This document shows positions 39,195-41,668 of a stretch of 64,000 bases of DNA, in pieces. Each line of letters opens with the position of its first letter. Within the stretch, counting starts at the first letter, position 1. A model generated the notes under the pieces. It was not told the origin of the DNA. It ran no database searches and saw nothing but the letters and a program-made list of their open reading frames with translations. Source of the DNA: an uncultured Succinivibrio sp. (GTDB lineage: Bacteria; Pseudomonadota; Gammaproteobacteria; Enterobacterales; Succinivibrionaceae); contig CAKQDA010000003.1 of NCBI GenBank assembly GCA_934218695.1, positions 1 through 64,000 of the forward strand. The letters are read 5' to 3'. Made by a program: the position numbers and the translations under genes.

Positions 39195-40184
39195 TTAGAT
39201 AGTGTTATCTAATTCTGATGGAGGCCAGTTCTCAAGACGCATACCTAATGATAAACCTCTTTCTGCAAGTACATCCTTGATTTCAGTCAATGACTTCTTG
39301 CCTAGATTTGGAGTCTTGAGTAGCTCAACTTCGGTCTTCTGAACTAGATCACCAATATACTTGATGCCTTCAGTCTTTAGACAATTTGCAGAACGTACTG
39401 TTAATTCAAGATCTTCAACAGGACAAATCAACTTAGGATCGATAAGAGGTCTGAACGAAGAATCCTCAGTAGGAGCGACAGAATTTCTGATATCAACGAA
39501 TGAATTCAACTGATCAGCAAAAATAGTAGCTGCAATACTTACAGCATTCTTTGGATCTATAGTGCCATTTGTTTCAATATCAAGAATTAACTGTTCTTTT
39601 TCATCCGCAATAGGAGCTGTGTGTACAGCTACATTTAACACAGGGCAATATGATGGGTCTATCTGTAAATGACCGATGAAACGCTCTTCTGAGCCTTCAA
39701 CGTATGGACGATTGACAGCAGGAACATATCCACGACCGCGAGTTACATGCAAATGCATATTTAACTCTTTGTTATCGTCTGTTAAATGACAAATGATTTG
39801 TTCTGGGTTCTTAATTTCGATACCAGCAGGACACTGAATGTCTGCAGCAGTAACCGGACCAACACCTTTCTTCTTCAGCAGAAGAACAGGTTCGTCTCTC
39901 AAAGAACCTTCTGATGCAACAGCAACTTCTTTTAGATTTAAAAGTATAAGAAGAATATCTTCTTGAATGCCTTCTACTGCACTGTATTCATGCACTACAC
40001 CATCAATTTCTACTGCGGTGATGGCATATCCAGGAATAGAGGACAGCATAATACGACGGAGTGCTGTGCCTACGATTTGAGCATAATGAGGCTCAAATGG
40101 CTCAAGAATTACACGGCTGACATTACGTGAAAGCTCAGTAACTTCTTTAATATTTGGCTTAATAGAATCAATGATCTGATCCAA
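39195..40184 (-). CDS. rpoA: RNA polymerase alpha subunit, copy 1 (beta-side type)
   Basis: This is a full-length alpha subunit of 329 residues, encoded after rplQ rather than before it. It keeps the assembly helix ALRRIMLSS (Arg43-Arg44, equal to E. coli Arg44-Arg45), VEIDGVVHEYS, EGIQEDIL, GPVTAADI, ICHLTDDN and RGRGYVPA. It has lost E. coli residues about 187-200 (the RVEQRTDLDK region), replaced by a shorter unrelated stretch. Helix 1 also departs from ERGFGHTLG. The C-terminal domain is intact, with the DNA-contact residues of TVRSANCLK and NLGKKSL. Translation appears to start at TTG, preceded by GAGGGTG; no in-frame ATG or GTG fits. I infer a dedicated alpha-I, facing beta. Confidence 0.95.
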   Translation of the reverse strand: MDQIIDSIKPNIKEVTELSRNVSRVILEPFEPHYAQIVGTALRRIMLSSIPGYAITAVEIDGVVHEYSAVEGIQEDILLILLNLKEVAVASEGSLRDEPVLLLKKKGVGPVTAADIQCPAGIEIKNPEQIICHLTDDNKELNMHLHVTRGRGYVPAVNRPYVEGSEERFIGHLQIDPSYCPVLNVAVHTAPIADEKEQLILDIETNGTIDPKNAVSIAATIFADQLNSFVDIRNSVAPTEDSSFRPLIDPKLICPVEDLELTVRSANCLKTEGIKYIGDLVQKTEVELLKTPNLGKKSLTEIKDVLAERGLSLGMRLENWPPSELDNTI

Positions 40185-40230
40185 GGTTTCACCCTCGTTT
40201 TTTAGTACAGTTAGTTAGCTAGAAATCTGA

Positions 40231-40252
40231 ATGGGCGCAACTATGCGCCCAT
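40231..40252 (-). other. GC-rich hairpin between rplQ and rpoA copy 1
   Basis: A perfect 9-bp stem ATGGGCGCA/TGCGCCCAT with a 4-nt loop starts right after the rplQ stop. No T run follows, so it looks more like a processing or stabilising structure, or a partial terminator, than a full stop. It stands out because neighbouring alpha-operon gaps lack such structures. Confidence 0.65.
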
Positions 40253-40256
40253 AGAA

Positions 40257-40655
40257 TTATTCAGCAGCTTTTGAATCTTTTGATTCTTCAGCAGCTTCAG
40301 GACGGTCAGTTAACATGATATAAGCTACAGGAGCCTTATCAGTTGAACGTAAACCAGCCTTTAAGATACGGGTGTAACCGCCGTTACGGTTAGCTGATAG
40401 CTTACCAATAACGTTGAATAACTTTGCTACAACAGCTTCATCACGAAGACGAGCCTGTGCTAAACGACGGTTTGCAACGGTATCAACCTTAGCTAAAGTG
40501 ATTAATGGTTCTACGAAGCGACGTAATTCCTTAGCCTTTGGAACAGTAGTCTTAATTACTTCGAAGGTTAATAAAGCCTTAGCTAAATTACGGTACAATG
40601 CAGCACGGTGTGCAGCTGTACGACCTAAATGACGGCCACTTAAACGATGACGCAT
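40257..40655 (-). CDS. rplQ: 50S ribosomal protein L17
   Basis: bL17 lies near the exit-tunnel side of the large subunit. The start MRHRLSGRHLGRTAAHRAAL and the central ELRRFVEPLITLAKVDTVANRR are typical. It has 132 residues with an acidic, Ser/Glu/Ala-rich tail. It is normally the last gene of the alpha operon; here a second alpha-subunit gene follows it. Confidence 0.98.
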   Translation of the reverse strand: MRHRLSGRHLGRTAAHRAALYRNLAKALLTFEVIKTTVPKAKELRRFVEPLITLAKVDTVANRRLAQARLRDEAVVAKLFNVIGKLSANRNGGYTRILKAGLRSTDKAPVAYIMLTDRPEAAEESKDSKAAE

Positions 40656-40675
40656 TTTTAATTCCTTCTAAACAG

Positions 40676-41668
40676 TTATTTGTTTGGTGCACGAAGTCCT
40701 GGTGGAGGCCAATTAGCCACACGCATACCTAAAGACAGATTTCTCTGAGCTAGAACGTCTTTAATTTCATTTAAAGATTTCTTGCCAAGATTTGGTGTCT
40801 TAAGTAACTCTACTTCAGTCTTCTGTACCAAATCGCCGATGTAAATGATATTCTCCGCCTTCAAGCAATTAGCAGAACGAACTGTTAATTCCAGATCATC
40901 AACTAACTGCATTAAAACAGGATCAGGCATAGGAGGAGCAGCAGGTGTCATAACACGTTCACTAATCTCTTCCTTATCCACAATGTTGCAAATACTGTCA
41001 CAAATTAGATTAGAACCATTCATCAATGCAACTTCAGGAGCAATAGTTCCATTAGTTTCAATGTCAATAACTAATCTATCTAGATCGGTACGCTGCTCAA
41101 CACGAGCTGACTCTACTTCGTAGACATAGCGGCGTACTGGACAATAATTTGCATCAATTAAGATGGTATCTTCTGAATCTGCAGGAATATGCTTATCAGA
41201 AGTTGCCATCACATAACCCTGACCAGAGGTGATGCGAAGTTTCATCGACAACGAAGCCTTGGCACCTTTTAGAGTGCAAATACGGGCTTCAGGGTCAACA
41301 AAAGATATATTTTCAGGACATACGATATCTGAAGCATGAACTTCTCCTTCGCCACGTCTCTCAATTGTCAACCAAACAGGCTCATTTAAAGGTTCTTGAG
41401 CAGAAATGGCAAGAGACTTCAAGTTCATTACCACATCAAAAAGTGTTTCCTCAAGATCAGCTTTTGAGCTGTTAATGTCCTTAACGCCCGCCATCTGAAA
41501 TGCATCTACTGCAGTTCCAGACAGGGTCTTTAGTAAAATTCCACTTAAAGCTACGCCTAAGGTATAACCGAAACCACGCTCTAGTGGCTCAAGCACTAAA
41601 CGTGCATGATTTGGGCTGACTTCAGTATAATCAACTGGCTTTGGCTTCAGTAGTTCAACAACAGACAC
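40676..41668 (-). CDS. rpoA: RNA polymerase alpha subunit, copy 2 (beta'-side type)
   Basis: This 330-residue alpha subunit is at the canonical place between rpsD and rplQ and starts at GTG after GGGG. It keeps LEPLERGFGYTLG and YEVESARVEQRTDLDRLVI (residues 183-201), nearly identical to E. coli residues 185-203. The assembly Arg-Arg pair is replaced by Ser42-Gly43 (ALSGILLKT), and the VEIDG-HEYS, GPVTAADI, ICHLTDEN and RGRGYVPA blocks have all diverged. The C-terminal domain is intact and differs from copy 1 at only 9 of 67 positions by my count. The frame is open and the constrained blocks argue against decay. I infer a dedicated alpha-II, facing beta'. Confidence 0.95.
   Translation of the reverse strand: MSVVELLKPKPVDYTEVSPNHARLVLEPLERGFGYTLGVALSGILLKTLSGTAVDAFQMAGVKDINSSKADLEETLFDVVMNLKSLAISAQEPLNEPVWLTIERRGEGEVHASDIVCPENISFVDPEARICTLKGAKASLSMKLRITSGQGYVMATSDKHIPADSEDTILIDANYCPVRRYVYEVESARVEQRTDLDRLVIDIETNGTIAPEVALMNGSNLICDSICNIVDKEEISERVMTPAAPPMPDPVLMQLVDDLELTVRSANCLKAENIIYIGDLVQKTEVELLKTPNLGKKSLNEIKDVLAQRNLSLGMRVANWPPPGLRAPNK

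What the first reader, a model, noticed from the sequence alone, without database searches (positions are those of the whole stretch)
39195..41668. Two complementary RNA polymerase alpha subunits, predicting an obligate alpha heterodimer
Seen: two intact alpha genes flank rplQ. Copy 1 (39195-40184) keeps ALRRI with the Arg pair, VEIDG, HEYS, QEDIL, GPVTAADI, ICHLTD and RGRGYVPA, but lacks the RVEQRTDLDK region (E. coli residues about 187-200). Copy 2 (40676-41668) has Ser-Gly for Arg44-Arg45 and has lost those blocks, but keeps LERGFG-TLG and the ARVEQRTDLD region almost unchanged. Known: in E. coli Arg45 and residues around 30-75 of one alpha contact beta, and residues around 175-210 of the other contact beta'. 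Francisella polymerase has two different alphas. Inference: the two functional faces of the alpha dimer have been divided between paralogues. Copy 1 would be alpha-I (beta side) and copy 2 alpha-II (beta' side), and neither homodimer should assemble a full enzyme. The linked arrangement around rplQ suggests a tandem duplication separate from the Francisella one.
Basis: partly seen in the sequence, partly recalled or inferred. Interest (0 to 1): 0.95.

Follow-up and report, generated by a model that had tools for sequence, protein, structure and literature searches.

The report
Polymerase scaffold split between two genes
Most sequenced members of the Succinivibrio family of gut bacteria carry two neighbouring genes for the alpha scaffold of RNA polymerase, and in the largest group each copy has lost conserved residues that the other keeps, so the enzyme is predicted to need one of each, a division of labour that likely arose independently of the one known from Francisella.

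Summary
Copy 2 (40676-41668) is in the canonical rpsD-rpoA-rplQ place, copy 1 (39195-40184) follows rplQ; the same order is seen in 45 of 45 loci holding both genes, named isolates included. In the main clade Arg45 is kept by copy 1 in 37 of 37 loci and by copy 2 in none; of 14 positions at 187-200 copy 2 keeps 11-14, copy 1 0-3 (36 loci). Both copies are under purifying selection and keep the C-terminal domain. Dimer-contact residues are split reciprocally as well. A sister clade (8 genomes) is intermediate: copy 1 has lost most of the beta' segment, copy 2 still has Arg45. Six relatives are single-copy. One duplication within the family is supported. Francisella shows the same division at many of the same sites; separate origin rests on the species tree, gene places and a tree without the face columns, while the all-column alpha tree pulls the two together. 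Best reading: an oriented, probably obligate alpha heterodimer, untested at the bench. The kind is known; a second case with surviving intermediates is new as far as my searches reach.

The parts
39195..40184 (-). rpoA copy 1, predicted alphaI (beta side), 329 aa, TTG start
40676..41668 (-). rpoA copy 2, predicted alphaII (beta' side), 330 aa, GTG start, in the canonical rpoA place after rpsD
40257..40655 (-). rplQ (L17), between the two rpoA copies
41716..42339 (-). rpsD (S4), upstream neighbour of copy 2
42371..42799 (-). rpsK (S11), upstream of rpsD on the same strand
40053..40058 (-). codons for Arg43-Arg44 of copy 1 (E. coli Arg44-Arg45), kept; Arg45 is the beta-binding residue
   Evidence: role of Arg45 from PMC3294249
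41540..41545 (-). codons for Ser42-Gly43 of copy 2, where E. coli has Arg44-Arg45
41078..41107 (-). codons for ARVEQRTDLD of copy 2 (E. coli about 190-199), beta' segment kept
39591..39620 (-). eroded beta' segment of copy 1 (TAPIADEKEQ; E. coli 194-197 deleted)
40231..40252 (-). 9-bp perfect hairpin between rplQ and copy 1, no T-run behind it; possible mRNA processing or attenuation element (function untested)

Best explanation
The two rpoA genes are intact duplicates that have each lost a different part of the alpha subunit, and their products are predicted to pair as one oriented heterodimer that builds the polymerase. Shown by sequence: copy 1 keeps Arg45 and the 66-77 block but not the 187-200 segment; copy 2 is the reverse; both are conserved and both keep the C-terminal domain. 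Inferred: copy 1 sits as alphaI and binds beta, copy 2 sits as alphaII and binds beta'; a copy 2 homodimer would fail to bind beta (as E. coli R45A does) and a copy 1 homodimer would fail to bind beta' (as E. coli alpha with an insertion at 200 does). Inferred: the dimer interface favours the heterodimer, because the F35/T38/L39 side is mostly ancestral in copy 2 and changed in copy 1, while the I46/S50/Q227 side is ancestral in copy 1 and mostly changed in copy 2. Inferred history: one tandem duplication in this family after the single-copy lineage split off; copy 1 lost the beta' segment, and on the main stem copy 2 lost Arg45.
For: Gene order rpsK-rpsD-rpoA-rplQ-rpoA on one strand in 45 of 45 loci that hold both genes. 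Two rpoA in 45 of 56 family genomes, one in 6, one cut at a contig end in 1, none found in 4; 6 of 370 gammaproteobacterial genomes have two or more. Arg45: copy 2 0 of 37, copy 1 37 of 37; match to the 14-residue 187-200 consensus in 36 loci: copy 2 11-14, copy 1 0-3. N-terminal sites kept by copy 1 and lost by copy 2: 16 of 99 (R44, R45, S49, S50, H66, E67, Y68, G73, D77 and others); the reverse: 14 of 99 (G34, G36, T38, Y185, V187, A190, R191, V192, Q194, R195, T196, L198 and others). Dimer cluster, ancestral states over 36 loci (1 skipped): copy 2 donor side 88/108, acceptor 26/108; copy 1 donor 9/108, acceptor 107/108. Median pairwise dN/dS in 8 close loci 0.107 (copy 2) and 0.086 (copy 1). 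DNA-contact positions of the C-terminal domain (recalled) identical in both copies, 36 of 36. Copy 2 and copy 1 of both clades each form one group, 100/98 and 100/99, also without face columns; two separate duplications rejected, p-AU 0.0012 and 0.019, 0.039 without face columns for the main clade. Concordance with Francisella-type alpha1/alpha2: 8+8 shared sites against 2+1 crossed.
Against: No binding, stoichiometry or expression data. The footprint-range test for the beta face alone is not significant. Copy 2 keeps Leu48 (37 of 38) and both copies keep Lys86 (38 of 38, 39 of 39), residues that also matter for beta and beta' in E. coli, so each face is changed in part only. Two of 36 main-clade loci (L051, L052) do not show the donor side split. 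Structure predictions used 10 rows each and are weak (mean pLDDT 54 and 68); no complex could be modelled. The intermediate clade shows that copy 2 with both faces persists beside a changed copy 1.
Confidence: 0.86

Rival explanations
1. Two kinds of alpha homodimer, or a mix of homo- and heterodimers, make several polymerases with different regulation.
For: Both copies keep complete C-terminal domains that could contact DNA and activators; up to four core forms were first proposed for Francisella (PMC3294249, background). In the intermediate clade copy 2 keeps both Arg45 and the beta' segment.
Against: In the main clade neither copy alone has both Arg45 (37 of 37 loci) and the 187-200 segment (36 of 36), and the dimer-contact residues are split reciprocally in 34 of 36.
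Confidence: 0.07
2. Copy 2 no longer builds polymerase but is a regulator or a donor of the C-terminal domain.
For: Copy 2 has lost conserved residues across its N-terminal domain (retention 0.51 against 0.78 in copy 1 outside the faces).
Against: It keeps the beta' segment almost unchanged (11-14 of 14) and most of the donor side of the dimer cluster, and copy 1 has lost that segment in all main-clade loci that reach it, so something must supply it.
Confidence: 0.04
3. Copy 2 is a decaying duplicate.
For: Longer stem branch of copy 2 than of copy 1 in the tree (0.67 against 0.37).
Against: Full-length open frame of 326-334 aa in 45 of 45 loci, dN/dS about 0.11, C-terminal domain conserved as in copy 1 (0.93 against 0.94).
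Confidence: 0.01
4. The split has one origin shared with Francisella through gene transfer, not two origins.
For: With all columns Francisella-type alpha1 falls beside copy 1 and alpha2 beside copy 2 (86/73 and 84/46); AU does not settle it (p 0.168 and 0.288).
Against: Without the face columns Francisella-type alpha1 and alpha2 leave copies 1 and 2 and join each other, though with support 40/8 only. The species marker tree puts Francisella far away. The Francisella alpha in the ribosomal operon is alpha1, here it is the alphaII-like copy. Of 370 gammaproteobacterial genomes 351 have one rpoA and 13 none found.
Confidence: 0.06

Closest known systems
Francisella RNA polymerase alpha1/alpha2 heterodimer (PMC3294249; solved chains 6wmp_A and 6wmp_B)
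   Same: Two diverged rpoA genes; alpha1 keeps Arg45 and lacks the 189-193 segment, alpha2 has Gln at 45 and keeps DARVGRRTDLDKL; 16 of 19 sites asymmetric in both agree in direction; copy 1 scores higher against 6wmp alpha1, copy 2 against alpha2.
   Different: There alpha1 is in the ribosomal operon and alpha2 elsewhere; here both flank rplQ and the canonical place holds the alphaII-like copy. Here an intermediate clade survives, and S50/Q227 are changed in copy 2, which they are not in Francisella alpha2, where position 46 is changed.
Rpb3/Rpb11 and archaeal Rpo3/Rpo11 (alpha-like heterodimers)
   Same: Two different alpha-like subunits, the larger one on the beta-like side (PMC3294249 discussion; PMC13374769 passages).
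   Different: Here both subunits are full bacterial alphas with C-terminal domains, of common origin within one family; no Rpb10/Rpb12 partners are implied.
Engineered oriented E. coli alpha heterodimers (wild type plus R45A; cited in PMC3294249)
   Same: Orientation fixed by presence of Arg45 in one alpha only.
   Different: Made in the laboratory; only the beta side is marked. Here both faces and the dimer contact are divided.
Other bacterial rpoA duplications listed in PMC3294249 (Chloroflexus, S. avermitilis, Psychromonas ingrahamii, L. borgpetersenii)
   Same: More than one rpoA.
   Different: The last two are stated there to be identical recent copies; I did not examine the face residues of any of the four. 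Five multi-copy genomes of this order, of 10 outside the family, were examined and keep both faces in all copies.

Membership tests
Bacterial RNA polymerase alpha subunit (rpoA) | Equivalog score above cut-off and the three alpha domains in both copies | tested here: met
Francisella-type alpha1/alpha2 oriented heterodimer | Two diverged rpoA per genome | tested here: met
   window has both; 45 of 56 family genomes
Francisella-type alpha1/alpha2 oriented heterodimer | Arg45 in one copy only | tested here: met
   37 of 37 main-clade loci, the window included; not met in the 8 intermediate genomes, where both copies have it
Francisella-type alpha1/alpha2 oriented heterodimer | beta' determinants kept in the other copy | tested here: met
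Francisella-type alpha1/alpha2 oriented heterodimer | Heterodimer forms and homodimers do not; robust activity needs both | not testable with these tools
   needs bench work; only the residue pattern was checked
Francisella-type alpha1/alpha2 oriented heterodimer | Common descent with the Francisella pair | tested here: inconclusive
   species tree and face-free tree speak for separate origins, the all-column tree pulls them together, AU rejects neither
Rpb3/Rpb11-type alpha-like heterodimer | One short Rpb11-like subunit without further domains | tested here: not met
   both copies are full length with C-terminal domains

The most novel reading that the evidence does not exclude
A family of gut bacteria has evolved, separately from Francisella, an obligate and fixed-orientation alpha heterodimer by splitting both the polymerase-binding faces and the dimer interface between tandem paralogues, and it preserves the steps in living species: homodimer, half-split and fully split, a natural replay of how archaea and eukaryotes came to have Rpb3/Rpb11.
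Probability: 0.72. Interest if true: 0.85.

Novelty: new variant of a known kind. Interest (0 to 1): 0.8.

Why it matters
A textbook constant of bacteria, the alpha homodimer, would be broken a second time, in a family of rumen and gut bacteria. Because single-copy, half-split and fully split species all survive, the order in which a homodimer becomes an obligate heterodimer can be tested directly, which bears on the origin of the Rpb3/Rpb11 split. Fixed orientation would also give a natural enzyme in which the alphaI and alphaII C-terminal domains are different genes, so their roles at promoters can be separated. In practice, rpoA counted as a single-copy marker would misjudge these genomes (a consequence I infer, not tested).

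Tried and rejected
Whole genome of the window: not held. rpoB and rpoC are not in the window (tblastn with the E. coli proteins, no hit). Decay of copy 2: rejected. Duplication separately in main and intermediate clades: rejected (the main clade also). Assembly artefact or strain mixture: rejected, since named isolates (S. dextrinosolvens DSM 3072 and ACV-10, S. faecicola, Anaerobiospirillum NML120448) show the same tandem order; beta was found in 45 of 56 family genomes, once in 44 and as two pieces in 1 (G056). Footprint-range permutation for the beta face: not significant. Gene conversion of the C-terminal domain: a tree of that part alone still gives copy 1 as one group (95/86) and copy 2 as one group weakly (49/82), so no broad conversion is seen. 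Co-change of beta or beta' with the split: 28 changed of 795 conserved beta sites and 28 of 856 beta' sites, spread along both; the densest beta' windows are 1261-1320 (6 of 32) and 541-600 (5 of 29); the second may lie in the alpha-contact region, but that region is recalled and many windows were looked at, so it is a lead only. AlphaFold models: low confidence with 10 rows each, not used. Literature: searches; 'Succinivibrio' with 'rpoA' gave 0 papers; in the other searches I saw only the listed papers (20 of 133, 4 of 4, 20 of 331, 15 of 293, 8 of 8, 2 of 2) with the starts of their abstracts, and none is on rpoA duplication in this family. PMC3294249 was read in parts 1-3 of 5; PMC13374769 only as found passages (12 of 27 shown), with 0 occurrences of Francisella. 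The library lacks most subscription journals, so absence there is weak.
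Full report
OBSERVATION. Two intact rpoA genes lie at the stated coordinates on the minus strand: copy 2 (40676-41668, 330 aa) directly after rpsD, then rplQ (40257-40655), then copy 1 (39195-40184, 329 aa). 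Both are full alpha subunits by Pfam and by the NCBIfam rpoA equivalog. Against E. coli alpha, copy 1 keeps Arg44-Arg45, HEYS, QEDIL, GPVTAADI, ICHLTD and RGRGYVPA but not ARVEQRTDLDK; copy 2 is the reverse.

WHERE IT IS FROM. The nearest genome record (L001, an uncultured gammaproteobacterium) encodes copy 2 at 98% identity; the other close ones are named Succinivibrio, Succinatimonas, Anaerobiospirillum or related Succinivibrionaceae (the 17th hit, a Bdellovibrionales contig at 39%, was set aside). All 16 of these genomes hold exactly two alpha genes. They were chosen by having copy 2, so I then searched the family without that choice: of 56 genomes 45 have two, 7 have one (6 whole, 1 cut at a contig end) and 4 have none found. 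In the order, 31 of 295 genomes have two or more, 21 of this family and 10 others, and 5 have none found; in five of those 10 that I examined, every copy keeps both faces. In the class, 6 of 370 genomes have two or more: the family's own reference, three Francisella-like genomes, G655 (which groups with these on ribosomal proteins) and one with two ordinary copies.

ANATOMY ACROSS THE FAMILY. The order rpsK-rpsD-rpoA-rplQ-rpoA, all on one strand, is found in 45 of 45 loci that hold both genes: the window, 36 others of its clade and 8 of a sister clade. I call the copy after rpsD 'U' (copy 2 in the window) and the copy after rplQ 'D' (copy 1). U is a full-length frame of 326-334 aa in 45 of 45; D is 323-365 aa in 43, out of frame at its N-terminus in L003 and cut by a contig end in L073. 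In the main clade Arg45 is present in 37 of 37 D and 0 of 37 U, where Gly (26), Asp (9), Thr (1) and Ser (1) take its place; over E. coli 187-200 U matches the single-copy consensus at 11-14 of 14 positions and D at 0-3, in the 36 loci that reach it. E. coli 194-197 are deleted in nearly all D. In the sister clade D keeps Arg45 (8 of 8) but matches 187-200 at only 2-5 positions, while U keeps both Arg45 (8 of 8) and the segment (11-14). Six relatives have one ordinary alpha with both faces.

DIMER INTERFACE. PMC3294249 (parts 1-3 read) names an E. coli dimer cluster in which F35, T38 and L39 of one monomer meet I46, S50 and Q227 of the other. In 36 main-clade loci U mostly keeps the first set (88 of 108 ancestral) and has mostly changed the second (26 of 108); D has changed the first (9 of 108) and kept the second (107 of 108); 34 of 36 loci are complementary, L051 and L052 are not on the donor side. 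A heterodimer would thus have one half-interface ancestral on both sides and one changed on both sides; either homodimer would mix the two. In the sister clade the cluster is less changed (U 24/24 and 16/24, D 21/24 and 24/24; complementary in 2 of 8). That this favours the heterodimer is inference.

SELECTION. In eight close loci (window included) median pairwise dN/dS is 0.107 for U and 0.086 for D. The C-terminal domain keeps 93% and 94% of the sites conserved in single-copy relatives, and seven DNA-contact positions (recalled) are identical in both copies in 36 of 36 loci. Neither copy is decaying.

SITE STATISTICS, FOR AND AGAINST. Of 99 N-terminal sites conserved in 26 single-copy alphas, 16 are kept by D and lost by U, and 14 are kept by U and lost by D. 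The beta' footprint range differs from random N-terminal site sets (103 of 20000); the beta footprint range does not (5932 of 20000), since U has lost conserved residues in the rest of its N-terminal domain as well (retention 0.51 against 0.78). In the sister clade that rest is better kept by U (0.77) than by D (0.66). Wide loss in main-clade U is compatible with alphaII leaving much of that domain unbound, but is not evidence for it.

HISTORY. On rpsD plus rplQ the single-copy genomes stand beside the two-copy ones (96/83 for the two-copy group), which divide into the main (100/98) and sister (100/100) clades. Without Francisella, U and D of both clades form one group each (100/98, 100/99), and separate duplications are rejected (p-AU 0.0012 for the main clade, 0.0187 for the sister clade); with the face columns removed U and D still form one group each (100/98, 100/97) and p-AU is 0.039 for the main clade, while sister-clade U alone is then no longer one group. 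So one duplication preceded both clades. By parsimony Arg45 of U was lost on the main stem, after the copies had separated; D had lost most of the beta' segment in both clades, once or twice.

FRANCISELLA. The genome G372 encodes alphas nearest to chains A and B of 6wmp, named alpha 1 and alpha 2 and present once each per entry (3 entries, 3 chains), whereas ordinary alphas there mostly occur twice. Its alpha1 keeps Arg45 and lacks the segment; its alpha2 has Gln45 and DARVGRRTDLDKL. Asymmetric sites agree with ours 8+8 times and disagree 2+1 times (Fisher p 0.021 and 0.0010 for the agreeing pairs; sites taken as independent, and the three Francisella-like genomes are near relatives). With all columns Francisella-type alpha1 joins D and alpha2 joins U, weakly, and AU rejects neither arrangement. 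With the face columns removed they leave U and D and join each other, at support 40/8, so the pull came largely from the face columns. I read this as convergence, on the species tree, the different gene places and the rarity of the trait; the alpha tree alone does not prove it.

MECHANISM. Mukhamedyarov et al. report that R45A blocks alpha2-beta formation in E. coli, that insertions at 180 and 200 impair beta' binding, and that Francisella needs both alphas for efficient dimers and robust activity, with low activity from alpha1 alone. The same reasoning here gives an oriented heterodimer, D at beta and U at beta'. In the main clade it is predicted to be obligate; in the sister clade a U homodimer may still work.

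THE REST OF THE POLYMERASE. Omega was found in 52 of 56 family genomes, one copy each except two in G027; beta in 45 of 56, one copy each except two pieces in G056. All 13 two-copy genomes whose beta I aligned have a 133-148 aa insertion after E. coli beta 411; the 5 others aligned (4 single-copy genomes, and G054 where no alpha was found) do not. Both changes fall on one branch as far as sampled, so this is a shared marker, not evidence of a functional link.

NOVELTY. The 2011 survey of 1055 genomes in PMC3294249 does not list this family among duplications; whether any member was in that set I do not know. A 2026 review describes the bacterial alpha as a homodimer (PMC13374769, passages). 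Seven searches showed no paper on it in what they listed. The kind is known from Francisella; what is new is a second, tandem case across most of a family, the reciprocal dimer interface, and the surviving intermediate grade.

Noticed in passing
L127-L144 (rpoB); not in the window: A 133-148 aa insertion in the beta subunit after E. coli residue 411 in 13 of 13 two-copy-alpha genomes aligned and in 0 of 5 others; no Pfam domain was reported within it in the two tested. It seems to have arisen on the same branch as the alpha duplication.
   Followed up: partly
window 32885-34402 (+): One open frame joins a YggS-like PLP-binding (Ala_racemase_N) domain and both domains of ProC (pyrroline-5-carboxylate reductase), genes that are often neighbours (gene names and adjacency recalled).
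   Followed up: partly
window 39195-40184, codons about 25-85 of copy 1: Among eight close loci copy 1 has unusually few synonymous changes here (fourfold-site identity 0.83-0.95 against 0.41-0.72 in the rest of the gene); not as marked in copy 2 (0.49-0.80 throughout) and absent in the wider set. A local sweep or an overlapping RNA signal are possible.
   Followed up: partly
window 40185-40256 and the same gap in relatives: The rplQ-copy 1 gap carries a strong hairpin in the window, L006 and L016, and is enlarged to 140-520 nt in the Anaerobiospirillum-like loci (L014, L048-L056) and 139-180 nt in the intermediate clade.
   Followed up: partly
L127-L144 (rpoC): A 26-aa insertion after E. coli beta' 592 in the 17 of 18 family members whose sequence reaches it, and a further 50-60 aa after 1073 in the 4 intermediate-clade members only; in the main clade several conserved beta' sites change at 541-603 and at 1261-1320.
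   Followed up: partly
L141 (G056): rpoB seems broken into two frames near its 3' end and rpoC carries an extra 160 aa after E. coli 502; possibly assembly errors.
   Followed up: no
L003: The N-terminus of copy 1 is out of frame in this metagenome-assembled record although very close relatives are intact; probably an assembly error.
   Followed up: no
L105-L109, L115-L118, L120, L125, L126: Other genomes of the order have two to four rpoA genes that keep both faces; in G155 the second (L120) is mildly diverged (QNEYSIKEGVQEEI) on the same contig. The rest may be recent copies or mixed assemblies.
   Followed up: partly
window 44883-45485 (-): rplO (L15) of 200 aa with a lysine/alanine-rich C-terminal tail, longer than the E. 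coli protein (length there recalled).
   Followed up: no
L064-L068, L070, L071, L077; L007: Copy 1 of the intermediate clade is 349-365 aa with a longer insert domain (about 15-20 codons), and copy 1 of S. faecicola has 13 extra residues in the eroded beta' loop.
   Followed up: no
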